The translations under genes and the position numbers were made by a program. A DNA stretch of 33,903 nt from Desulfovibrio sp. GTDB lineage: Bacteria > Bacillota > Dethiobacteria > DTU022. A model generated the notes under the pieces. The model worked only from the letters and a program-made list of their open reading frames with translations. It searched no databases and was not told the origin of the DNA. The stretch lies in assembly GCA_020060545.1 (NCBI GenBank), contig JAGUZX010000058.1, positions 1 to 33,903 on the forward strand. Direction: 5' to 3'. This document shows, piece by piece, positions 23,546 to 33,903 of this stretch (its first letter is position 1; each line of letters starts with the position of its first letter).

Positions 23546-24264
23546 TGGCGAACATTCACCCCTTTCGGTCCTGGGCGGAGCTGCAAGCGGTCATTTTTGA
23601 TGTCGACGGGACGCTGTACGACCAGGCCAAATTGCGCCGCCGCATGGCGGCGGGATTCATTAAATCATATGCGTTTCGGCCCTGGCTGGCCCGTGAATTA
23701 ATCGTTATTAATCACTTTCGCAGAGAACGTGAAAGACATATTTTCGACGATGTGGCGGATCTGGAGAAGGCCCAGTACCGGTGGGCGGCCGAAGCTTCAG
23801 GCGAACCGGCGGAGAAAGTGCGCCGGCTGGTGCAAAAATGGATGTATGATTTCCCATTGCGCTACCTGGCATCGTGCCGCCACCCCGGCGTGGCGGATTT
23901 TTTCCGGATGCTTGGGGAGAAAGGAATTATCCGGGCGATCTTCTCCGATTATCCCGCCCGGGATAAATTGGCCGCCCTGGGGCTAAGCGCGGATTATATT
24001 TTCAGCGCCGCCGACAAAGAGATTAACCGCCTGAAGCCGGATCCGGCGGGGCTGCGTTACATCATGAAACGGCTGGGAGTGACGGCCGAGCATTGCCTGT
24101 TTATCGGGGACCGCGACGACCGGGACGGTGAATGCGCCAGGCGGGCGGGGATGCCGTTTCTGCTCCTGGATAGCCGCAATCCTGGAAAGCCCTGCACTTT
24201 TACCGGTTACGCAGCGCTTTTGAAAACGCTTGATCAAGGAACCACCGCCGGCCGTTTAACATAG
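23545..24264 (+). CDS. HAD-superfamily phosphatase
   Basis: This 239-residue protein carries the HAD motifs: FDVDGTLYD (nucleophile Asp19, acid Asp21), FSDYPARDKL as the Ser/Thr motif region, INRLKPDP with the Lys, and IGDRDDRDG with the final aspartates. Cap-type insertion after motif I is helical. Its start codon overlaps the stop of the UbiA gene (TAATG), and AGGAG lies just upstream. HAD domains are known next to or fused with UbiA phosphoribosyltransferases, where removal of the 5-phosphate from polyprenyl-phosphoribose-phosphate is the expected next step (done by Rv3807c, an unrelated phosphatase, in mycobacteria). That role is inferred from gene order. Phosphoglycolate or another small phosphate could also be the substrate. 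Confidence 0.85.
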   Translation: MANIHPFRSWAELQAVIFDVDGTLYDQAKLRRRMAAGFIKSYAFRPWLARELIVINHFRRERERHIFDDVADLEKAQYRWAAEASGEPAEKVRRLVQKWMYDFPLRYLASCRHPGVADFFRMLGEKGIIRAIFSDYPARDKLAALGLSADYIFSAADKEINRLKPDPAGLRYIMKRLGVTAEHCLFIGDRDDRDGECARRAGMPFLLLDSRNPGKPCTFTGYAALLKTLDQGTTAGRLT

Positions 24265-24299
24265 CTTAACCGGCTAATCAAGATGCAGTAAATAGGCGA

Positions 24300-24360
24300 C
24301 AGGGAAATAAACCCATTAATAATCACGCATACTCGCCTGATCTTGCAGGAAATTAAACCC
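24300..24360 (+). repeat. Imperfect 15-bp direct repeat pair in a leader region
   Basis: CAGGGAAATAAACCC (24300-24314) and CAGGAAATTAAACCC (24346-24360) match at 13 of 15 positions. AGGCGA (24294-24299) also pairs with TCGCCT (24333-24338), and CAGGG (24300-24304) with CCCTG (24358-24362), so alternative RNA folds are possible. The pair lies in the 188-base gap between the HAD gene and the lipoprotein gene, which otherwise holds no recognisable gene. Confidence 0.4.
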
Positions 24361-24452
24361 TGGAAGGAGAATATGCCCGCCAACGGCAGCAACAGGAGAG
24401 AAACGCGAAGCAGATCACTGCACGTGACTTGATACCCAGGAGGGCGGTTTTT

Positions 24453-25508
24453 ATGTTTTTGCGCACCGGATTTCCGGCAGCGTTTTTGCTCTTGTTATCG
24501 GTGGCCTTCGCCGGTTGCGGCGTTGCGCATGAGGTTGACGGCACGGCCGGCTGCACGCGCCGTAACGCGGCGGAGACGCCACGAATGGAAGCGGCGGCGA
24601 TCTGCGTTCCCGATGATTATCCCTCGATCCAGCAGGCCATCGACGCCGCCGCTGACGGCGGCGTCATCGTGGTCCGGCCCGGCCAGTATGACGAAAATCT
24701 GAATTTCAAGGGCAAAGAAATAACCCTGCGCAGCACAGACCCCGACGATCCGCAGATCGTCGCCTCAACGATCATTTACGGCAACGGCAAGGGGACGGTC
24801 GTTATATTCGCGGGAGGGGAAGGCTCTGGCACGGTGCTGGCGGGGTTTACCATCAGCGGCGGAAGCGGCAGCATGCTTCCGGGATACCACGGCTGCTTCG
24901 GCGGTGGTATTCTTGTCTGCAACGGAAGCGCCCCCTTGATTGAAAAAAATGTGATCAGGGATAATTCAACCGGCGCGGGAGCCATCTTGCGGCCGCCCGG
25001 TTTCGGCGGGGGCATCGCTGTTCTGCATGCCTCGCCGTGTATCGTTGGGAATCGGGTAATACACAACAGCGCCGAAATCGAAGGAGGGGGTATTTTCATC
25101 CTGGCTTCCGAACCGGTCATCGAAGGCAACACCATCGGCTACAACAGGGCCAGGATTGGCGGCGGCCTCGCGGCATGCAATCAATCCAGGCCGATGATCA
25201 TCGGCAACGTCATTTACCGGAATTCGGCCATTGAAGGAGGCGGTGTTAATCTGTCGGCTTCCCCGGCATATCTCCTGGACAACCAGATTACCGGCAACCG
25301 CGCCGAAGTTTACGGCGGTGGGGTTTCGGTGTGGAGATCCAACCCGGTGATTGAAGGCAATACTTTCGAGCAGAACAGCGCCCGGATCAAGGGCGGAGCC
25401 ATTTGCCTCTCCAGGGACTCGCTTGTCCGCCTGAAGACCCGCTGGAGCAATACTTTTCGCCGCAACCGCCCCGACCATCTCTTCTACCAGCCATCTGAAT
25501 TCTCCTAA
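24453..25508 (+). CDS. Lipoprotein with right-handed parallel beta-helix (PbH1-type repeats)
   Basis: This protein of about 351 residues has a signal sequence (about 1-22) ending FAGC, a plausible though not ideal lipobox, so it is probably anchored outside the membrane. IQQAIDAAADGGVIVVRPGQY is a typical opening of pectate-lyase/NosD-like helices. Repeats then begin with GGG or GGx near residues 150, 185, 211, 236, 262, 288 and 314. The spacing is 25-26 residues from the second repeat on, each with a P-x-I-x-x-N-x-I core and N-S/R-A turn. Such folds are found in polysaccharide lyases and epimerases and in binding proteins; no catalytic triad could be assigned. ATG 24453 has AGGAGGGCGG upstream. 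In context it could trim, epimerise or bind the exported polymer. Confidence 0.85.
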   Translation: MFLRTGFPAAFLLLLSVAFAGCGVAHEVDGTAGCTRRNAAETPRMEAAAICVPDDYPSIQQAIDAAADGGVIVVRPGQYDENLNFKGKEITLRSTDPDDPQIVASTIIYGNGKGTVVIFAGGEGSGTVLAGFTISGGSGSMLPGYHGCFGGGILVCNGSAPLIEKNVIRDNSTGAGAILRPPGFGGGIAVLHASPCIVGNRVIHNSAEIEGGGIFILASEPVIEGNTIGYNRARIGGGLAACNQSRPMIIGNVIYRNSAIEGGGVNLSASPAYLLDNQITGNRAEVYGGGVSVWRSNPVIEGNTFEQNSARIKGGAICLSRDSLVRLKTRWSNTFRRNRPDHLFYQPSEFS

Positions 25509-25590
25509 ATCTTTTCCCCGATAATCATCAAACCATTAATGCACCCGGTGCCCGGCGCGGGTGAGAAAACCCGGGCAGGAGGGATCCCAG

Positions 25591-27405
25591 ATGCAGGAAC
25601 CTGGAAAAGGGACAGTTAAAATGACTACACAGACACGGCTGGGTCAAATACTGCTTTACGCTGCCGGTGCCTTGCTGGCCGGCGGGCTTGCCTTGGCGGC
25701 TCTTTCTTGCGTCTCATTCGAACCGGTAAAGGCGGTAATCGACGCCATGGCCATAACCGGCACCGCCAAAATCTTTACCAGGGATCTTTACGCCCAAATC
25801 ATGGGCCGCTGCCGGATCTTCGGGGCCGCCTTGTCGGCCGCGGCGCTCCTCTTTTTCCTGGGCCGGGAGCAGATCCGCCGCTATATCCTGGAACTGGCCG
25901 CATCATTCGCCCCCTTTTGGAAAAAAACAGCCGCGCATTTCCGGGAGGCATTTTTGCAACAGGAACGGGCGCTGTCAATTGCCCTGCTTGTAATTGTTCT
26001 TTCAGCGGCCGCCGTGAGGGTTCTCTTCCTCTGCCAGCCGATGCGCTACGACGAATCGGCCACCTTTCTCTACAACGCCTCCCGCCCGCTTGTCGTGGCC
26101 GTATCTTATTATAACAGCCCCAATAACCATCTCTTTCATACTTTGCTGGTGCATCTCGCCCATTCAATTTTCGGCTCCGCACCCTGGGCGGTACGGTTGC
26201 CCGCCTTTTTTTTCGGGGTGCTGCTGGTTCCGGCAACTTTCCTGGTGGCGCGGCTCTATTTTAACCGCTACGCCGCTCTGCTGGCCGCCGCCCTGGCGGC
26301 TTCCTCCTCCGCGCTGGTGGAGTACTCGGCCCTGGCGCGCGGTTATACAATTTTATGTTTTTTCACACTCCTGTTGTTTGCCCTGGGAGCGTATCTTCGC
26401 CGGAATAGCGATGCATTTGCCTGGTTCATCTTTGCGCTGGCCGCCGCCCTGGGCTTCTATACAGTCCCGGTCATGCTCTACCCCTTCGGGATCATAGCGC
26501 TGCTGCTCTTTGCTTCCATAGTGATGCAAAACCGCGGCCGGTGCCGGGTGCTGCTGCTCAGGCAGATGTTTATCTCTTTCCTGGTGGCGGCAGCCTTCAC
26601 CGCCCTGTTCTACCTGCCTGTCTTTGTCGTATCCGGGCCCGGCGCGGTTACCGGAAACTGGGTCGTGGCACCCCAAACCTGGTCATACCTCTCCAACAAT
26701 CTGCCTGTTTTGCTTATTTCCACCTGGTTCCAGTGGAACCGTGACTATCCCAAGGCGCTGGATCTTTTTTTGGCGCTGGGTTTTCTGCTCTCCATTTTGT
26801 CTTATCGCCGGTTCCGTAAATTTCCGCTCTACCTGCTCTCCGCCACGTTCATCTGGTTGGTTCCCGTAATTGCGGCGCAAAGAGTGGTACCTGCGGTGCG
26901 GATCTGGCTGTTTCTCCTGCTTTTCTACCTGATCCTGGCTGCCGCGGGCTTTGGCTTGCTCCTGGAGAAAGCGGCCGCCAGATGGCCCCGCTCTAAAGCG
27001 ATGGTATTTTCCGTAACCGCCGCCGCCCTGTCGCTGTGCTTGTGCCTGAGAGTGATCAGCGCCGGGACGGTTTACTATTCCAATGAGACCGGCACGTTGA
27101 GGGACGGTGCGGCTATCGCCGCATACCTTCAGGAAAACTTGCAGCCGGGGGACAGGGTTTTGGCCAACGCGCCCTCAGACGCCATTCTGCAATACTATTT
27201 TTACCGGAACGGCTACCCCGACCGCTGCCTGTGGTTTCCTGTGGGCGAGGCAAAGCGCATCGTGGTCGTGGTCAACGAGTCATTTTCCCATACCCTCCAC
27301 GAGATGCTGGCCGGGGCCGGCCCGGCGAGCCTCCAAGGCTCTTTGCCAAGGGTGCTGGCCCAGTATGAATCCGCCACCCTTTACGAGATAAACTTGAAAG
27401 AATAA
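25591..27405 (+). CDS. GT39-like GT-C glycosyltransferase with extra N-terminal membrane region
   Basis: This polytopic protein of about 604 residues has a core with the external-loop motif QPMRYDESATFLYNAS (acidic DE pair) and SYYNSPNNHLFHTLLVHLAH, both GT39/PMT-like. LARGYTILCFF is the usual third segment. Before that core lie about 130 residues with two additional hydrophobic helices (about 20-42 and 75-95) not seen in the other GT-C proteins of the window. The enzyme should use a polyprenyl-phosphate sugar outside the membrane. ATG 25591 has AGGAGGG 7 bases upstream; an ATG at 25621 is a weaker option. The 82-base gap before it contains GC-rich inverted repeats (CCCGG/CCGGG). The next GT-C gene follows after 21 bases. 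Confidence 0.8.
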   Translation: MQEPGKGTVKMTTQTRLGQILLYAAGALLAGGLALAALSCVSFEPVKAVIDAMAITGTAKIFTRDLYAQIMGRCRIFGAALSAAALLFFLGREQIRRYILELAASFAPFWKKTAAHFREAFLQQERALSIALLVIVLSAAAVRVLFLCQPMRYDESATFLYNASRPLVVAVSYYNSPNNHLFHTLLVHLAHSIFGSAPWAVRLPAFFFGVLLVPATFLVARLYFNRYAALLAAALAASSSALVEYSALARGYTILCFFTLLLFALGAYLRRNSDAFAWFIFALAAALGFYTVPVMLYPFGIIALLLFASIVMQNRGRCRVLLLRQMFISFLVAAAFTALFYLPVFVVSGPGAVTGNWVVAPQTWSYLSNNLPVLLISTWFQWNRDYPKALDLFLALGFLLSILSYRRFRKFPLYLLSATFIWLVPVIAAQRVVPAVRIWLFLLLFYLILAAAGFGLLLEKAAARWPRSKAMVFSVTAAALSLCLCLRVISAGTVYYSNETGTLRDGAAIAAYLQENLQPGDRVLANAPSDAILQYYFYRNGYPDRCLWFPVGEAKRIVVVVNESFSHTLHEMLAGAGPASLQGSLPRVLAQYESATLYEINLKE

Positions 27406-27426
27406 GCGGAAGGAGGGAGCTAGACC

Positions 27427-28968
27427 TTGGAAACGGCAAGTTCGCCGGTCCGGTTGCAGAGCCGGGATGCTCTGGCAAAGAGAATATACCTTTCTCCCCG
27501 GTTTATCTATTTTCTGCTTGCTTTTGGAGCGCTGACCCGCCTTGCACAATACCTTGCCAACCGGCCTTTGTGGCTCGACGAGGCCATGATCACTTTGAAC
27601 ATCATCAATCGCAGTTATCCGGAACTTCTTCAGCCCCTGGATTATGTTCAAGCAGCTCCGGTCTTATTTTTATTGGCCGTAAAATATTGCTGCGAATTAT
27701 GGGGTGACAGCGAAATTGTTCTGAGGTTTGTCCCTTTTATTTTCGGATTGCTGGCACTGGCAGTGTTTTATCCGCTAGGCCGGAGAATGATCAGGCCTCA
27801 GGCTATGCCAATTGCATTAACCTTGTTTGCTTTTTCCCGTTACGCCATTCATTATGCTGTGGAAGTTAAGCCATATTCACTTGACCTGGCTTTTACAGTA
27901 ATTGTTTTACTGTTTTCTTTTTGCGTATTGACTGGAGGTTTCCGGTTTAAAAACTGCCTGGCTTTAGGTCTGGCGGGTGCTGCCGCCGTTTGGTGTTCGC
28001 ATGCTGTCATTTTTGTCATGGCCGGAGCAGGCGCGGCGCTGCTGATTGAAGCCTGGTTAAACAGAAAAAACTGGGGTTACCGGCCGGTAGTACAAACAAC
28101 CTGGGTATGCGTTTTGTGGGCCGCCAGCTTTTTGTGCAGTTATTATCTATTTGTCCTGCCTACTGTCCATCCGAATTTTTTCATCTTTTGGGAATACTGT
28201 TTTTTCCCGTTTCCTCCTCTTACTTTAAATGATCTTACCTGGTTGCCCAGCACCGTTTTAAGCTTAATTAACAACCCGCTGGGTCTGGTTACCCCCGGCC
28301 TTGTAATCATGGCCATGATCGCCGGCACAGTTTATTATTGGCGCTCAAGGAAGCGGTTTCATCTGTTGTTGTTCTTCCTTCCGCTGGTTGCTTTACTTTC
28401 CGCCTCGGCTTTGGGCCTTTACCCTATCTCGGATCGGCTGGTGCTTTTTATTTTACCGCTATGCTATCTGCTGATGGCCGAGGGGGCTTACCAAATCTTT
28501 GCCTGCTGCCACCGGGAACGTATTCTCGAGGCTGCTTTCTTAATGCTTCTGCTGATTTATCCGGTTGGAGGTGGCGCCAAGCGTCTGATCAGCCCCCATT
28601 CAGCCCAGGAAACCAGGCCCGTGATCTCGTATTTCCTGGAAAGCAGGCAGGAAGATGAGCCGATTTATATGAATTTTTCCGCTCAATATGCCTTTCAGTA
28701 TTACACCCGGGAGCGGCCGGTGGAATACCACATCTGGGAGGAACCAATCGGCGCTACCGTTTACCTTAACCTGCGCTTTTTCGAAATGGAAGAGCAATTT
28801 ATCGAGAGCGGGCGGGCCTGGTTTTATATTGCTTATTTTCCGGTTCAGGATATCCCTGCAGCAATTCTAAAATCCTTTTTAGATGCAAGGGGTACGCTCA
28901 TCGACAGCTATTCAGCCGCCGGAACAGCTCTCTACCTCTATGATTTCAGTGCAGCAGATCGGCGGTAG
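27427..28968 (+). CDS. GT39-like GT-C glycosyltransferase, paralogue of the gene at 20302
   Basis: This 513-residue polytopic protein contains LANRPLWLDEAMITLNI with the acidic DE pair, then YPELLQPLDYVQAAPVLFLL and VEVKPYSLDLAF. These align nearly residue for residue with the GT-C protein at 20302, so the two are paralogues. A polyprenyl-phosphate sugar donor is expected. The start is TTG 27427, with AGGAGGG 9 bases upstream and no ATG nearby in frame. Much of the gene, especially 27840-28960, is visibly richer in A and T than its paralogue and neighbours (many TTT, ATT and TTA codons). This hints at a different origin or older divergence. It is the last gene before a clear promoter. Confidence 0.82.
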   Translation: METASSPVRLQSRDALAKRIYLSPRFIYFLLAFGALTRLAQYLANRPLWLDEAMITLNIINRSYPELLQPLDYVQAAPVLFLLAVKYCCELWGDSEIVLRFVPFIFGLLALAVFYPLGRRMIRPQAMPIALTLFAFSRYAIHYAVEVKPYSLDLAFTVIVLLFSFCVLTGGFRFKNCLALGLAGAAAVWCSHAVIFVMAGAGAALLIEAWLNRKNWGYRPVVQTTWVCVLWAASFLCSYYLFVLPTVHPNFFIFWEYCFFPFPPLTLNDLTWLPSTVLSLINNPLGLVTPGLVIMAMIAGTVYYWRSRKRFHLLLFFLPLVALLSASALGLYPISDRLVLFILPLCYLLMAEGAYQIFACCHRERILEAAFLMLLLIYPVGGGAKRLISPHSAQETRPVISYFLESRQEDEPIYMNFSAQYAFQYYTRERPVEYHIWEEPIGATVYLNLRFFEMEEQFIESGRAWFYIAYFPVQDIPAAILKSFLDARGTLIDSYSAAGTALYLYDFSAADRR

Positions 28969-28979
28969 TCCGCAGTCGG

Positions 28980-29006
28980 TTAACGATTCTTAACGAGGAC
29001 TTAATT
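28980..29006 (+). promoter_or_regulatory. Three phased TTAA-type repeats resembling PhoP boxes
   Basis: TTAACG occurs at 28980-28985 and 28990-28995, and TTAATT at 29001-29006, with gaps of 4 and 5 bases. The 10-11 base phase places them on one DNA face. They end directly at the -35 of the promoter for the fourth LCP gene. The Bacillus subtilis PhoP box is a direct repeat of TTAACA-like hexamers with about 5-base gaps. The resemblance is clear for spacing but not exact in sequence. Confidence 0.4.
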
Positions 29007-29035
29007 TGACTTGACTGGAGGGTGGCCGCTATAAT
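29006..29035 (+). promoter_or_regulatory. Sigma-A-type promoter for the fourth LCP gene
   Basis: TTGACT (29006-29011, 5 of 6 consensus) is followed after 18 bases by a perfect TATAAT (29030-29035). A start site near 29042 would give a leader of about 37 bases before ATG 29079. This is the best promoter match in the window and implies that the LCP gene is expressed separately from the operon upstream. Confidence 0.75.
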
Positions 29036-29078
29036 TTGATCTGAAAGAGTAACGGGAAGCCGGTTGGGAAGTGAAGCG

Positions 29079-30224
29079 ATGCTAAAAATAAAAAAAATAC
29101 TGGTCGTTCTGAGCGCGATCCTGATGATGGCATCAGCCTTATTGGCTGTTTACCTGGGGGATCCCGCCCGGGTGTTCAAAACGGCGGGCAGTTGGGACGG
29201 CGCATTCACGATGGGCGATGCTTTTGACCGGGAAAGAGTCAACTTAGTTTTACTCGGGTTTGACCGCACGGAAGAAAGAGACGCCATTTACCGGATTTAC
29301 CGCCCGGATACGATCATGATTGCTTCAATCAGTTTTCGCACCGGGGAGATCGCACTGGTCAATATCCCCCGGGACAGCTATGTGCTGATTGCGGGAACGG
29401 ATAGTTACGACAAAATTAATCACGCCTATATGTATGGGTATAATCAGCCCGGTGCCGGCGACCCCCACCGGAGCGGCATCAATGCGACCATTGAAACGAT
29501 CGAACATTTCCTGGGAGGGGTGCCGGTTCATTTCTATGTTTCTCTGGACATGGACGGGCTTGTCGAAATAATCGACCGGGTGGGCGGGATTGATTATGAG
29601 GTGGAGCATCAGGTCCGGGCGGATTTCGGCAGGGGGGGGCTCCTGTTGGACCAGGGATACCAGCACCTTGACGGCAGCCGGTTTTTAACCTATATTCGCG
29701 ACCGCAGTGTCGGCGGGGATACGGGAAGGTCCCTGCGGCAGCAGCGGATCTTGATTGCCGCGCTGGAGCAGATCAAAAAGAAGTTGCGGCCCCCAGATAT
29801 CATTCCGCTTTACCGGTCCTGGCAAAAAAACACGGAAACAAATCTCTCCCCGCTCCAGCTTGGTTACCTGTCCCGGTTAGGCCTGAAAGTGGACCCGGGT
29901 TCGATTAAAACCGGCGTTTTTCCCGGTACAATCCAGTTCGCGCCTCGCAACGGTGTTGATATCTCTTATATTGTGATTGACGAACCGGCCAGGGTGAAAT
30001 TGATCGGGGCAATATTCGGGGTTTCCGTGGCCGCCCGGCCGCAAATCATCCTGCCCGGCCCACGCCTGGTGGCGCAGAAGCCGGCCGAACCTCCGGCAAC
30101 GCCCCCGGCTCACGCCGTCCCCAATCCCGACGAGCCGGAGCCGCCTCTCGCAGACGAAGCCGTGCCGCCTGGCGATCAGGTTTCGGAACCGGCGGAAAAC
30201 GGCACCGGTGATGACGGCAATTGA
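29079..30224 (+). CDS. LCP family wall-polymer ligase with proline-rich C-terminal tail
   Basis: This 381-residue protein has one membrane helix (about 6-24) and an LCP domain (about 45-260). Motifs are LLGFDRTEE, YRPDTIMIASI (normal R-x-D), NIPRDSYVLI, YDKINHAYMYGY, RVGGIDYEV and GRSLRQQRIL. The last 50 or so residues are rich in Pro, Ala, Glu and Asp and look disordered; they probably extend into the wall. ATG 29079 has GGAAGTG upstream; an in-frame TTG at 29064 adds five residues. It has its own promoter with possible regulatory repeats. It stands at the right edge of the polysaccharide locus, and the 164 bases after it hold no gene or clear terminator that I can see. Confidence 0.92.
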   Translation: MLKIKKILVVLSAILMMASALLAVYLGDPARVFKTAGSWDGAFTMGDAFDRERVNLVLLGFDRTEERDAIYRIYRPDTIMIASISFRTGEIALVNIPRDSYVLIAGTDSYDKINHAYMYGYNQPGAGDPHRSGINATIETIEHFLGGVPVHFYVSLDMDGLVEIIDRVGGIDYEVEHQVRADFGRGGLLLDQGYQHLDGSRFLTYIRDRSVGGDTGRSLRQQRILIAALEQIKKKLRPPDIIPLYRSWQKNTETNLSPLQLGYLSRLGLKVDPGSIKTGVFPGTIQFAPRNGVDISYIVIDEPARVKLIGAIFGVSVAARPQIILPGPRLVAQKPAEPPATPPAHAVPNPDEPEPPLADEAVPPGDQVSEPAENGTGDDGN

Positions 30225-30388
30225 ACTGCAGGCATTAACTTTTTGAACGGGCGGCGCCAATCTTTCCGTTCCGCCTGGCCGAAGCTCCTGCAAGCATGGG
30301 CGCGCCCCGATCGGCCGCATGCGCCGCCCGCAGCGGAAACAGCCGCAGGCGCCGTGGCGTGCGCCTCATGTGGAGAGAAGGCTGCCCC

Positions 30389-30814
30389 TTAGTGAAACTC
30401 GATCTCGATATTCCGGCGCCGGGTATCCGGTTCCGCCTTCGGCATGACGATCTGCAGGATCCCGTTGCGGTAGCTTGCCCTGGAGGCATCGGCGATGACC
30501 GGCCCGGGCAGGGTCACGGCGCGGTGGAAGCTGCCCTGGAAGCGCTCCCGCCGGTGGTAGTTTTCTTCCCGCACCTCTTTGGCCCGCTTCACCGCACCCC
30601 TGACTTCAAGGAGATTATCCCGGATGTCGATGTTGATGTCTTCTTTGCGCTCCACGCCCGGGATCTCGCAATGGGCGACAATCTCTTTTTCGGTTTCGTA
30701 GATATCGATGCGCGGCCCCTGGATATCACCGTACCAGGGAATCCCCCAAAAGCGATCCATCTCGCGCCGCACGTTTTCCAGGTGGCGGAAAGGTTCGTAG
30801 GGCGTTAAAGACAT
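30389..30814 (-). CDS. Small heat-shock protein, Hsp20/alpha-crystallin family
   Basis: This 141-residue protein has an alpha-crystallin domain (about 35-130): PRIDIYETEKEIVAHCEIPG, DINIDIRDNLLEVRG, RRERFQGSFHRAVTLP and the closing YRNGILQIVMPK. The short N-terminus (YEPFRHLENVRREMDRFW) is typical of bacterial members. It is a cytoplasmic holdase that binds unfolding proteins under stress. AGGAGGT lies upstream of the start at 30814. It is transcribed away from copA. No CIRCE operator was seen in its leader. It does not appear to be part of the polysaccharide system. Confidence 0.95.
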   Translation of the reverse strand: MSLTPYEPFRHLENVRREMDRFWGIPWYGDIQGPRIDIYETEKEIVAHCEIPGVERKEDINIDIRDNLLEVRGAVKRAKEVREENYHRRERFQGSFHRAVTLPGPVIADASRASYRNGILQIVMPKAEPDTRRRNIEIEFH

Positions 30815-30870
30815 TTCTAAACTACCTCCTGCCAGACTTATTTGTTATTATTTTTCTTCATGGATGTGAT

Positions 30871-30899
30871 AATATACCGTTAAACGTGGTTTCAATCAA
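30871..30899 (-). promoter_or_regulatory. Sigma-A-type promoter for the hsp20 gene
   Basis: On the minus strand TTGATT (30899-30894) is followed after 17 bases by TATATT (30876-30871). Transcription would start near 30863, about 50 bases before the hsp20 start codon. The intergenic region shared with copA is AT-rich. No convincing plus-strand promoter or CsoR-type operator for copA could be identified in it. Confidence 0.5.
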
Positions 30900-30950
30900 G
30901 CACGGAAAAATTAGGGCTTGCCACTTTTTCAAAACGGGAGGCGCGGCTGG

Positions 30951-33434
30951 ATGGGCACGGTGGAACATGATTTCAGGATCGAGGGAATGCACTGCGCCGC
31001 CTGCGCCAGGCGGGTGGAGCAGGAGCTGAGCCGGATCGGCGGGGTCGAGCAGGCCCGGGTCAACCTGGCCACGGAAAAAGCTTATGTCCGCTACGACCCG
31101 GACAAGGCTGCCCCGCGCGCGCTCTACGAAGCGGTGGAACGAGCGGGTTACCGCGCGGCTGCCGCCCGGGAACATGACACTTTCAAAGTCGTCAACCTGA
31201 CCTGCGCCAGCTGCGTCAACCGGGTGGAGCAGGCCTTAAGCCGGGTGCCCGGTGTCGGTGAAGCGCGGGTAAACCTGGCCTCCGGGCGTGCCTTTGTGAC
31301 CTATGATCCCGCCGCGGCGGATGCGGCGGCGCTGCGGCGGGCCGTAATTGAAGCCGGTTACGGCGTTGAAGAAGAAGCGCGCGGTCCGGAAGAGGAAGCA
31401 GATGCTCAGGCCTGGCTGTTTAACGCGGCGCGCCTGCGGATGATTGTCGCCTGGATCTTTACCTTGCCGGTTATCATCTGGATGATCCCGGAGATGTTTT
31501 TCCATTTCGCCCCTTTCGGGCACGGCTCGATGAACCTGGGGATGGTTGTCCTGGCCGCCCCGGTTCTTTTCTGGCCGGGCCGTGAAACCTTACTGGGAGC
31601 GGAAAGGGCGCTGCGCCACGGCACGGCCAACATGGATGTGCTGATCTCTATGGGCACAGTCGCCGCGTTTTTGACCGGCCCTTTTTCTTTTGTTTTTCCG
31701 ATCGCCAACTATGCCGGGATCGCGGCCATGATCATGGCTTTTCACCTTACCGGTCGCTACCTGGAGGCGAAGGCCAAGGGGAAAGCTTCGGAGGCGATCC
31801 GCAGGTTGCTGCAGCTCGAAGCCCGCACGGCTAACCTGATTGTCGGCGGTGACGAGCGGCAGGTGCCGATCGAAGAGGTGCAGGCCGGAGACCTGATGAT
31901 GGTACGTCCGGGCGAGAAGATCCCTACCGACGGGACGGTGGAGCAGGGTGAAAGCAGCGTGGACGAATCGATGGCCACGGGAGAGTCGCTGCCCGTCCCC
32001 AAAGGGCCCGGTGACCCGGTAATCGGGGCCACGGTGAACCAGGAAGGGGTGCTGCAGGTGAGAGCGACCCGGGTGGGGAAAGATACCTTCCTGGCCCAGG
32101 TGATCCGCCTGGTGGAAGAAGCCCAGGGGACGCGGGTGCCGATCCAGGAGTTTGCCGACCGGGTGACGGGATGGTTCGTGCCGGCGGTACTCGGCGTGGC
32201 GGTTTTGACCCTGGCTTTGTGGCTCCTGCTGCCGGGGCCGATGCGCGCCGTGGTTGAGGCGGCGGCGCCCTACCTGCCCTGGGTCGACCCGGCCCTGAAC
32301 CGGCTCAGCCTGGCCGTGGTGGCCGTGGTGGCGGTGCTGGTAATCGCCTGCCCCTGCGCTCTGGGCCTGGCTACCCCCACCGCCCTGATGGTGGGCAGCG
32401 GCCTCGGGGCGGCCAACGGGGTGCTGATCCGGCACGGCGCCGCGATCCAGGCGCTGCTGGAAGCGCGGACGATCATTTTTGACAAGACGGGCACCCTTAC
32501 CAAAGGTGAACCGGCGGTAACGGATATCCGGGCGGCAGGCGAATGGAGTGAAAAGGATTTGCTACGCCTGGCGGCGGGGTTGGAGCAAAATTCGGAGCAC
32601 CCCCTGGCCCGGGCTGTCGTCTCCAGGGCCAGGCAGGATGAAGGGCTGGTTATCCCCGCAGCCGGCTCTTTCAACGCCGTCCCGGGCAAGGGAGTACGGG
32701 CAGTGATCGACGGGCGGGCGGTTTTACTGGGGAACCGCAAGCTGATGGTGGAGAGCGGAATCGAACCGGCGCTGGACGAGGCGATTGAACAACTGGAGGG
32801 GCAAGGCAAAACGGTGATGCAGGTGGCGGTGGACGGCCGGCCGGCCGGAATTATCGCCGTTGCTGACGTGCTTAAAGAAGACGCCCCGGCGGCGCTGGCC
32901 GAGCTGCGGCGCCGCGGTTACGAGACGGTAATGCTGACCGGGGACAACCCCGTCACCGCGGCGGCGATTGCCCGGGCGGTCGGGATCGACCGGGTCCTGG
33001 CGGAGGTACTGCCCGGGGACAAGGCGGCGGAGGTAAAGCGGCTTCAGGAAGAGGGGCGGCGGGTGATTATGGTCGGCGACGGGATCAACGACGCCCCGGC
33101 GCTGGCCCAGGCTGATGTCGGCATCGCCCTGGGGACGGGGACCGATATCGCGATCGAATCGTCGGACATTACCCTGGTCCGGGGGGATCTCGCCGCGGTA
33201 ATCACCGCGCTAAACGTTTCGCGCGGTACTTTCCGCAAGATTAAAGAGAACCTTTTTTGGGCTTTTTTTTACAACCTGGTGGCCATCCCGGTGGCGGTGC
33301 TGGGCCTGCTGCACCCTGTGATCGCGGAAGCGGCCATGGCCTCCAGCTCCATCAGCGTAGTCACTAACGCCACCCGCCTGCGCCGGGCCCGCGTCCAACC
33401 CGATTTATCCCCGCCGGGCGCTCATGTTTCTTGA
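30951..33434 (+). CDS. copA: Copper-exporting P1B-type ATPase
   Basis: This 827-residue P-type ATPase has two N-terminal heavy-metal domains, with GMHCAAC (Cys15, Cys18) and LTCASC (Cys85, Cys88). Eight membrane helices follow. The actuator domain has the TGES-type loop (ATGESLPV). The metal-binding CPC motif in helix 6 is at residues 467-469, the phosphorylated Asp511 lies in DKTGT, and SEHPLA and [10 protein letters not shown] (about 709) lie in the nucleotide domain. FYN in helix 7 and MASSS in helix 8 complete the Cu(I) signature, so it should export cuprous ion. ATG 30951 has GGGAGG 9 bases upstream. No copZ or csoR is adjacent. The length is normal for a two-HMA CopA. Confidence 0.95.
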
Positions 33435-33460
33435 TTAACTTGCTAGAGGGAGTGGTATTT

Positions 33461-33903
33461 TTGGAGGCTCGCGAAAGGATTATCTGCGCCCTGGATGTTG
33501 ACAGCCCGGATCAGGCGCGCCAAATTGTGCAGGAGCTGGACGGGCTGGTCGATTTCTTCAAGGTCGGGATGCTGCTTTACCTGGCCGGCGGCAAAGAGAT
33601 CGTCGCGTGGCTGCTGGACAGGGGCAAAAAAGTTTTTCTCGACCTGAAGTTTTACGATGTTCCCGATACCGTCGGGCCGGCGGTAAAACAGGTGGCGGCG
33701 GCGGGGGTAACGTTCCTGACAGTGCACGGCAATCAAGAAATTTTGCAGCGGGCCGGTGAAGCGGCCGCCGGCAGCGCGCTTAAGGTACTGGGGGTGACTT
33801 TGCTGACCAGCCTGGATGAAAACGACTTAAAGCAGATGGGTTTCCCCTGTCCCGTGGAGGAGCTGGTCCTGCGCCGGGCCCGCTGGGCGCTGGATGGCGG
33901 CTG
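33461..33903 (+). CDS. pyrF: Orotidine 5'-phosphate decarboxylase, N-terminal part (3' truncated by window edge)
   Basis: About 147 codons are visible before the window ends. The protein starts EARERIICALDVDSPDQA, with the first beta strand of the barrel, then FFKVGMLLYLAGG and the catalytic D-x-K-x-x-D motif as FLDLKFYDVPDT (Asp61, Lys63, Asp66). TVHGNQEIL and VLGVTLLTSL follow, as expected for PyrF. It removes CO2 from OMP to form UMP in the last step of pyrimidine synthesis. The start is TTG 33461 with AGAGGGAG upstream; an in-frame GTG at 33452 overlaps that site. It follows copA after 26 bases, but the pairing has no obvious functional meaning. Confidence 0.93.
   Translation, partial: MEARERIICALDVDSPDQARQIVQELDGLVDFFKVGMLLYLAGGKEIVAWLLDRGKKVFLDLKFYDVPDTVGPAVKQVAAAGVTFLTVHGNQEILQRAGEAAAGSALKVLGVTLLTSLDENDLKQMGFPCPVEELVLRRARWALDGG

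What the first reader, a model, noticed from the sequence alone, without database searches (positions are those of the whole stretch)
28980..29078. Possible phosphate-responsive promoter for the fourth LCP gene
Three TTAA-type hexamers phased by 10-11 bases end at a strong TTGACT-N18-TATAAT promoter. PhoP boxes in Bacillus have this spacing and control teichoic and teichuronic acid genes during phosphate starvation. If real, the cell would switch the attached wall polymer when phosphate is scarce. The hexamers are TTAACG rather than TTAACA, so another regulator is possible.
Basis: partly seen in the sequence, partly recalled or inferred. Interest (0 to 1): 0.5.

Follow-up and report, generated by a model that had tools for sequence, protein, structure and literature searches.

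The report
Likely regulated promoter of LCP gene
The repeats in front of this cell-wall gene are real, but they look like the docking site of a cell-envelope two-component regulator rather than of the phosphate-starvation regulator, so the gene is probably tuned to wall condition and not to phosphate.

Summary
In detail: TTAACG, TTAACG and TTAATT start at 28980, 28990 and 29001 (steps 10 and 11) before TTGACT-N18-TATAAT and a LytR-CpsA-Psr (LCP) gene. The phosphate reading is testable, because the same genome has a phoP-phoR-pst-phoU operon. Before pstS, here and in relatives, lies a conserved Pho-box array of TTTAAC(A/C) units at strict 11-bp steps. The LCP site does not fit it: 8.6 bits against 29-38 for true sites, a score expected hundreds of times per genome. 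It does fit a second motif, TTAAC(A/G)AT at a 10-bp step, conserved in the promoter of a beta-propeller/Germane gene beside another OmpR-type pair ("TCS2"; strong kinase match in 56 of 60 genomes). A matrix trained on 10 relatives scores the LCP site 22.5 bits, inside the range of true sites and second only to TCS2's own promoter in 129 kb. TCS2 resembles MtrAB-LpqB and the WalRK of C. difficile. Best reading: a cell-envelope regulator, probably activating, controls the gene. Against it: the site is not conserved at LCP homologues, pattern hits beyond the TCS2 promoters do not exceed controls, two of the four own-genome hits face away from their gene, and binding is untested.

The parts
28979..28995 (+). 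Core box pair GTTAACGATTCTTAACG: two half-sites at a 10-bp step, proposed binding site of the TCS2 response regulator
   Evidence: 22.5 bits with a matrix trained on 10 relatives' TCS2 promoters; 2 of 258,470 own positions reach it, this one included; 0 of 20,000 shuffles of 28969-29078
29000..29006 (+). Third half-site CTTAATT, 11 bp after the second, touching the -35 hexamer
   Evidence: read directly; the stretch TTAATTTGAC is kept in the LCP promoters of G016 and G024
29006..29035 (+). Sigma-70-type promoter TTGACT-N18-TATAAT
   Evidence: 11 of 12 matches; TTGAC(T/C) with TATAAT, read by eye, also stands before the homologues in G016, G024, G018 and G011
29079..30224 (+). LCP (LytR-CpsA-Psr) gene, the fourth of the window; an upstream TTG start at 29064 is possible
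   Evidence: PF03816, 112.9 bits, cut-off 24.6; ORF
27427..28968 (+). Preceding gene (513 aa, perhaps a membrane glycosyltransferase), ends 11 bases before the boxes
   Evidence: PMT_2 at 23.7 bits, below its cut-off of 26.1
30389..30814 (-). Convergent Hsp20 gene; the LCP gene is therefore likely transcribed alone from this promoter (inferred)
   Evidence: PF00011, 63.5 bits

Best explanation
The array is an operator for an OmpR-family response regulator, most likely that of TCS2, a pair at contig C63 of the same genome. Shown: TCS2 lies next to a beta-propeller/Germane membrane-protein gene, and the promoter of that gene carries boxes of one kind (TTAAC(A/G)AT type, 10-bp step) in the 11 closest kinase loci; the LCP site matches those boxes in sequence and geometry and fails the genome's Pho-box motif. 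Inferred: phosphorylated TCS2 regulator binds head to tail on the two half-sites at 28979-28995 and probably the third at 29000-29006, just upstream of the -35 hexamer, and raises the output of an already strong basal promoter, so that more LCP ligase is made to attach glycopolymer when the sensor reports a change in the envelope. The signal is not known.
For: TCS2 locus: OmpR-type regulator; histidine kinase with a WalK-type Cache domain (PF23846, 33.6, cut-off 27) and no PAS match; then a 680-aa protein with propeller-type and Germane matches. The kinase has a match at E <= 4.2e-86 in 56 of 60 genomes, own included; in the other four (G008, G019, G034, G040) only weaker kinase matches. Boxes after the kinase in the 11 closest loci; a third unit at 20-22 in 10 of 11. 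Matrix from 10 relatives, own genome left out: own TCS2 promoter 27.7, LCP 22.5, leave-one-out range of true sites 18.2-27.6. Only 2 of 258,470 own positions reach the LCP score; among 24 TTAA pairs at a 10-bp step in 129 kb the LCP site ranks second after TCS2's own. The motifs separate: pst promoters of 15 relatives score -2.1 to 13.0 with the TCS2 matrix, TCS2 promoters of 10 relatives -0.4 to 18.1 with the PhoP model. The four own-genome matches to the TCS2 pattern lie before the propeller/Germane gene, the LCP gene, an M23+G5 peptidase gene and a DUF881 gene; a DUF881-like neighbour in G001 (by sequence likeness, not scanned) also has one. The half-site resembles the C. glutamicum MtrA consensus (A/G)TAACAAT, and there sites upstream of -35 activate (PMC3353115, passages).
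Against: The site is not conserved: in 22 LCP homologue loci (up to 250 nt before the match, 125 in one) the best TCS2 score is 15.5, and the closest homologues (G016, G024) have 7.8. Over 12 genomes, the 15 pattern rows that are not TCS2 promoters do not exceed the 16 rows of the reversed control, so counts alone do not prove a regulon. Of the four own places, those before the M23+G5 and DUF881 genes match on the strand opposite to the gene; read toward the gene they score 16.6 and 17.5. Chance is not negligible: 0 of 20 million random positions at 56% GC reach the LCP score, but at 40% GC the rate gives about 2.5 per genome. That the TCS2 regulator binds the boxes beside its own genes is inferred from position. 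From first box to -10 it is 50 bases here, 56-58 in 9 of 11 TCS2 promoters. No binding or expression data.
Confidence: 0.5

Rival explanations
1. A PhoP box, as first read: PhoP~P binds the array when phosphate is scarce and changes LCP expression.
For: The genome has PhoP-PhoR-Pst-PhoU in one operon with true Pho boxes before pstS that share the TTAAC core. The flexible PhoP score of the LCP leader is rarer than in shuffles (16 of 20,000 reach it).
Against: 8.6 bits against 29.0-37.8 for relatives' sites (leave-one-out) and 33.9 for own pstS; 25 of 258,690 own positions score as well, by extrapolation about 486 per genome. Pho boxes step by 11 and read TTTAACA/TTTAACC; the LCP site steps by 10 and reads TTAACGAT. 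No LCP homologue locus has a Pho-like site: best flexible score over 22 loci 8.0; at least eight of the genomes behind these loci have phoR next to pstS or phoP (G003, G004, G005, G009, G023, G027, G028, G034).
Confidence: 0.1
2. Another OmpR-type regulator of this genome (WalR at C21, or those at C38, C85, C135:12488) is the owner.
For: Six OmpR-type regulators, PhoP and TCS2 among them, score at least 95 bits for the DNA-binding domain in this genome; direct repeats are common binding sites of this family (PMC3353115, passage).
Against: The WalR consensus TGTWAH-N5-TGTWAH (PMC9210968, passage) needs TGT, and 28979-29078 holds none on either strand. The motifs of the other regulators were not examined.
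Confidence: 0.15
3. No dedicated operator: an AT-rich stretch upstream of a strong constitutive promoter that by chance holds three TTAA.
For: The promoter itself (TTGAC, TATAAT) is kept in several relatives while the boxes are not; TTAA as such is not enriched in the window (238 found, 237.8 expected); random DNA of 40% GC gives about 2.5 such matrix scores per genome.
Against: 0 of 200 shuffles give the triple, 0 of 20,000 shuffles of the leader give the TCS2 score, and the letters CGAT after TTAA fit the TCS2 motif beyond the TTAA core (second of 24 pairs).
Confidence: 0.2

Closest known systems
MtrA boxes of the MtrAB-LpqB system (Corynebacterium, Mycobacterium, Streptomyces)
   Same: Half-site TTAAC(A/G)AT against (A/G)TAACAAT; direct repeat; regulator and kinase genes followed by a third envelope-protein gene; a site upstream of -35 fits an activator (PMC3353115, passages)
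   Different: 10-bp step here, 11 in C. glutamicum; Bacillota; regulator and kinase are below the NCBIfam MtrA and MtrB cut-offs; the third protein shows no N-terminal lipobox by eye
WalRK (YycFG), in particular C. difficile WalA-WalR-WalK
   Same: Best NCBIfam matches of TCS2 are YycF and WalK, both below cut-off; Cache_WalK domain; kinase without PAS and with a propeller partner, as described for C. difficile (PMC9210968, passages)
   Different: The genome has a separate WalRK with YycH at C21; no TGTWAH repeats; in C. difficile walA is a lipoprotein gene placed first in the operon
PhoP boxes before pstS of the same lineage
   Same: TTAAC core, direct repeats, OmpR-family type of site
   Different: Strict 11-bp steps, A or C after TTAAC, and a last box that starts 16 bases before the -10 hexamer in the two relatives counted, with no separate -35 seen

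Membership tests
PhoP (Pho) box | PhoPR present in the genome | tested here: met
   C135:38740-45909; PstS, PstC, PstB and PhoU over NCBIfam cut-offs; PhoP and PhoR named by homology and position, below their cut-offs
PhoP (Pho) box | Units and spacing as in the lineage's pstS boxes (TTTAAC(A/C), 11-bp steps) | tested here: not met
   8.6 bits against 29.0-37.8 leave-one-out; step 10 between units 1 and 2
PhoP (Pho) box | Response of the gene to phosphate | not testable with these tools
   no expression data
TCS2 boxes | TTAAC(A/G)AT-type half-sites at a 10-bp step | tested here: met
   22.5 bits, inside the leave-one-out range 18.2-27.6
TCS2 boxes | Site conserved at LCP homologues | tested here: not met
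   best 15.5 among 22 homologue loci; 7.8 in G016 and G024
TCS2 boxes | Binding by the TCS2 regulator | not testable with these tools
   needs purified protein
MtrAB-LpqB (TCS2 as member) | Regulator, kinase and third envelope protein side by side | tested here: met
   L059:3361-7609: Germane and propeller-type matches; that LpqB itself has these two domains is recalled
MtrAB-LpqB (TCS2 as member) | Scores over the NCBIfam MtrA and MtrB cut-offs | tested here: not met
   MtrA 271.2 of 300, MtrB 205.3 of 450
WalRK (TCS2 as member) | Scores over the NCBIfam YycF and WalK cut-offs | tested here: not met
   YycF 296 of 340, WalK 331.6 of 725; the C21 pair scores higher (317.8 and 567) but also below
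WalR box | TGTWAH-N5-TGTWAH | tested here: not met
   no TGT on either strand of 28979-29078; consensus from PMC9210968

The most novel reading that the evidence does not exclude
This Bacillota lineage carries, besides a conventional WalRK, a second, MtrAB-LpqB-like three-component envelope system whose regulator uses MtrA-like boxes and controls an LCP ligase, an M23 peptidase, a DUF881 gene and its own propeller/Germane partner, so that polymer attachment is set by the same sensor as wall remodelling.
Probability: 0.25. Interest if true: 0.6.

Novelty: new member of a known kind. Interest (0 to 1): 0.37.

Why it matters
It turns a guess about phosphate into a testable assignment: the lineage's Pho box and the TCS2 box are now defined separately, and the LCP promoter falls on the TCS2 side. 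If right, attachment of cell-surface polymers would be wired to an envelope-type sensor found in most genomes of the order examined here, and its resemblance to actinobacterial MtrAB-LpqB could be studied outside Actinobacteria.

Tried and rejected
PhoP as owner: tested with rigid and flexible spacing and set aside. WalR as owner: its consensus is absent. An RNA element: no Rfam family in the window at gathering scores. Other TTAAY triples as one regulon: C39 (on the strand opposite to the neighbouring ytvI gene) scores 11.4 for TCS2 and 15.2 for the flexible PhoP model; C135:54671 5.6 and 2.4 on its two strands for TCS2 (11.8 is the best in that leader) and -1.4 for PhoP; C22 12.1 and 18.9; left open. 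Two-box hits (TTAAC-N5-6-TTAAC) are at chance: 6 found, 7 for the reversed control.

Rows left out before counting: for the TCS2 matrix I used 10 relatives from the 30 kinase loci; the own locus was kept out as a test, and the other 19, with weaker or different boxes (one, G012, with the argS-like gene directly next), were not used. For the PhoP matrix I used 15 of the 17 relatives printed (L111 and L112, more distant, left out; L111 shows no clear array). In the LCP comparison L015 was left out because it has almost no upstream DNA, L026-L031 because they are weaker, paralogue-level matches, and L032-L038 were not scanned (L032-L035 have the contig lengths of loci already used).

The opposite orientation of two own-genome pattern hits had been left out; with it the confidence went from 0.55 to 0.5 and the novel case from 0.3 to 0.25.

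Full report
What is there. At 28980, 28990 and 29001 stand TTAACG, TTAACG and TTAATT, followed by TTGACT (29006-29011), 18 bases and TATAAT (29030-29035). The ATG of a LytR-CpsA-Psr gene follows at 29079 (PF03816, 112.9 bits). The array begins 11 bases after the stop codon of the preceding gene, and the next gene downstream is convergent (Hsp20), so the promoter most likely serves the LCP gene alone. The promoter is the best of 14 promoter-like sites in 24000-33903. Three TTAA at steps of 10-11 occur at one place in the window and in 0 of 200 shuffles. In the whole genome (2.5 Mb, 135 contigs) TTAAY x3 at these steps is found at five distinct places, control 0; on one strand all five read 0/10/21.

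The phosphate test. The genome has one match to the PstS family TIGR02136. It lies in an operon phoP-phoR-pstS-pstC-pstA-pstB-phoU on contig C135; PstS, PstC, PstB and PhoU pass their NCBIfam cut-offs, pstA was named by position, and PhoP and PhoR are recognisable but below theirs. The phoR-pstS gap of this genome, and of 15 of the 17 relatives printed, holds a conserved array: typically TTTAACC, TTTAACA and TTTTACC units at 11-bp steps, then a TTCC-type unit, a last TTTAAC unit and a -10 element (L111 shows no clear array, L112 was not used). A pattern search over 23 genomes finds a match behind phoR, before pstS, in 13 of them (set against the coordinates); the own pstS site is found. So the lineage's Pho box is known. 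A rigid matrix from 15 relatives gives own pstS 33.6 bits and the LCP site -5.8. With 10- or 11-bp steps allowed, own pstS gets 33.9, the leave-one-out values are 29.0-37.8, and the LCP site gets 8.6, a value reached at 25 of 258,690 own positions. The LCP site is therefore not a typical Pho box of this lineage.

The second motif. Two TTAAC hits in other genomes (G026, G011) lay just behind a different histidine kinase, which led to a second two-component pair, TCS2, at C63 of the own genome. A search with its kinase gives some match in 60 of 60 genomes (own included) and a strong one (E <= 4.2e-86) in 56; G008, G019, G034 and G040 have only weaker kinase matches. Next to it in the own genome is a gene for a 680-aa membrane protein with propeller-type matches (DUF5711, PQQ_2) and a Germane domain, then argS. 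In the 11 closest kinase loci, own included, the region behind the kinase and before the next gene (likened to the own one by its start only) holds two half-sites at a 10-bp step, near TTAAC(A/G)AT(A/T)-TTAA(C/T), with a third TTAA at 20-22 in 10 of 11. The own site is TTAACGATAATTAATTTATTTTTAAAA; the LCP site is TTAACGATTCTTAACGAGGACTTAATT, both 0/10/21. In the more distant loci (19 of 30) the boxes are weaker or different.

Scoring. A matrix from 10 relatives (own genome left out) gives the own TCS2 promoter 27.7 and the LCP site 22.5; leave-one-out values of the training sites are 18.2-27.6. In 129 kb of own DNA, both strands, these two are the only positions at or above the LCP score. Random DNA of 56% GC gave no such score in 20 million positions; at 40% GC the rate is 5e-7 per position, about 2.5 per genome. 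Shuffling the leader 28969-29078 gave 0 of 20,000. Because the finding was chosen for its TTAA units, the fairer test is conditional on them: among 24 TTAA pairs at a 10-bp step in the own DNA held, the LCP site ranks second, after TCS2's own. The stretches held were themselves partly chosen for TTAA hits. The two motifs separate: pst promoters score -2.1 to 13.0 with the TCS2 matrix, TCS2 promoters -0.4 to 18.1 with the flexible PhoP model.

Regulon. TTAAHDATWNTTAAY was searched in 12 genomes. It hits the TCS2 promoter in 12 of 12, but 11 of these were in view when the pattern was written; only G029 was new. In the own genome there are four places: the TCS2 promoter, the LCP gene, the gap before an M23+G5 peptidase gene next to walRK, and the gap between dagK and a DUF881 gene. 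The last two match on the strand opposite to the gene; toward the gene they score 16.6 and 17.5. In G001 one hit also lies before a gene like the DUF881 one, in the direction of the gene. DUF881 has no known function. The 15 rows that are not TCS2 promoters are matched by 16 rows of the reversed control over the 12 genomes, so the count alone is not evidence for a regulon.

Identity of TCS2. By NCBIfam the regulator is closest to YycF (296, cut-off 340), then MtrA (271, cut-off 300) and PhoB (264, cut-off 296); the kinase is closest to WalK, far below its cut-off, and has a Cache_WalK domain over the Pfam cut-off and no PAS match. The nearest solved chains are RegX3 and MtrA; RegX3 is, as recalled, a phosphate-linked regulator, so homology of the protein alone does not exclude a phosphate input. 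The own genome has a separate WalRK with YycH at C21, so TCS2 is not its WalRK. A regulator-kinase pair beside a propeller protein recalls MtrAB-LpqB (lpqB lies directly downstream of mtrAB and LpqB acts on MtrB: PMC3353115, passages; PMC13189361, passages) and the C. difficile WalRK, whose kinase lacks PAS and whose operon has a propeller lipoprotein, and which its authors compare with MtrAB (PMC9210968, passages). The C. glutamicum MtrA consensus, (A/G)TAACAATttn(A/G)TAACAAT (PMC3353115), shares seven of eight half-site letters with TTAACAAT, at an 11-bp instead of a 10-bp step; other MtrA consensus forms in print (Streptomyces, Mycobacterium, Actinoplanes) are less alike. These are likenesses; TCS2 fails the curated score tests for both families and is not filed as a member.

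Mechanism. Shown: the boxes, the promoter, the match to the motif beside TCS2. Inferred: the TCS2 regulator binds there, and it activates, since the boxes lie upstream of -35, the position from which MtrA activates in C. glutamicum. The near-consensus -35 and -10 suggest a fair basal level. From the first box to the -10 it is 50 bases here and 56-58 in 9 of 11 TCS2 promoters, so the arrangement is not identical. The input signal is unknown; envelope condition is the guess from the family.

Limits. The LCP homologues in G016 and G024 (60 and 59% identity) keep TTAATTTGAC and a TTAAG 10 bases before it but not the first box (score 7.8), and in 22 homologue loci the best score is 15.5, so control by TCS2 would be recent or particular to this genus. 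No same-genus genome was among the relatives offered. Literature: searches for MtrA with LytR-CpsA-Psr (2 papers), for LytR-CpsA-Psr with two-component system, response regulator, promoter and direct repeat (5 papers) and for LytR-CpsA-Psr with PhoP, phosphate limitation and Bacillus (1 paper) showed none whose title or abstract start reports such control; of these I saw passages of one paper only (PMC12113857), where the LCP mention is a reference. For the other papers cited I saw passages, not whole texts.

Noticed in passing
own genome C135:41359-41426 (L054:5360-5427): A clean Pho-box array between phoR and pstS, shared with relatives: units at 11-bp steps, the last box close to the -10 with no separate -35.
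   Followed up: yes
own genome C22:2771-2796 (L057): A TTAA triple with steps 10/11 lies directly before a Germane-domain lipoprotein gene, its first box 49 bases before a TATACT; it fits neither motif well (TCS2 12.1, PhoP-flexible 18.9).
   Followed up: partly
own genome C135:54671-54696 (L054): A TTAA triple ends 33 bases before the likely ATG (54730) of a 5'-nucleotidase-like gene, a classical kind of Pho gene (recalled); it scores low with both motifs and its TTAAY form reads on the opposite strand.
   Followed up: partly
own genome C39:30268-30293 (L056): TTAACGCAATTTAATTTTAC is 18 of 20 identical to the stretch in the LCP promoters of G016 and G024, but lies on the strand opposite to the neighbouring ytvI gene.
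   Followed up: no
window 24256-24270: A two-unit TTAACATAGCTTAAC lies about 160 bases before the start of the ORF at 24429; two-unit hits are at chance level genome-wide.
   Followed up: no
own genome C21:20419-25883 (L061): A conventional walR-walK-yycH set with an M23+G5 peptidase gene just upstream, so the genome has two WalRK-like pairs.
   Followed up: partly
G016, G024, G018, G026, G011: Relatives with close LCP homologues show no PstS match and no close PhoR, while other relatives in the family have the whole operon: patchy loss or gain of phoPR-pst, as far as drafts tell.
   Followed up: partly
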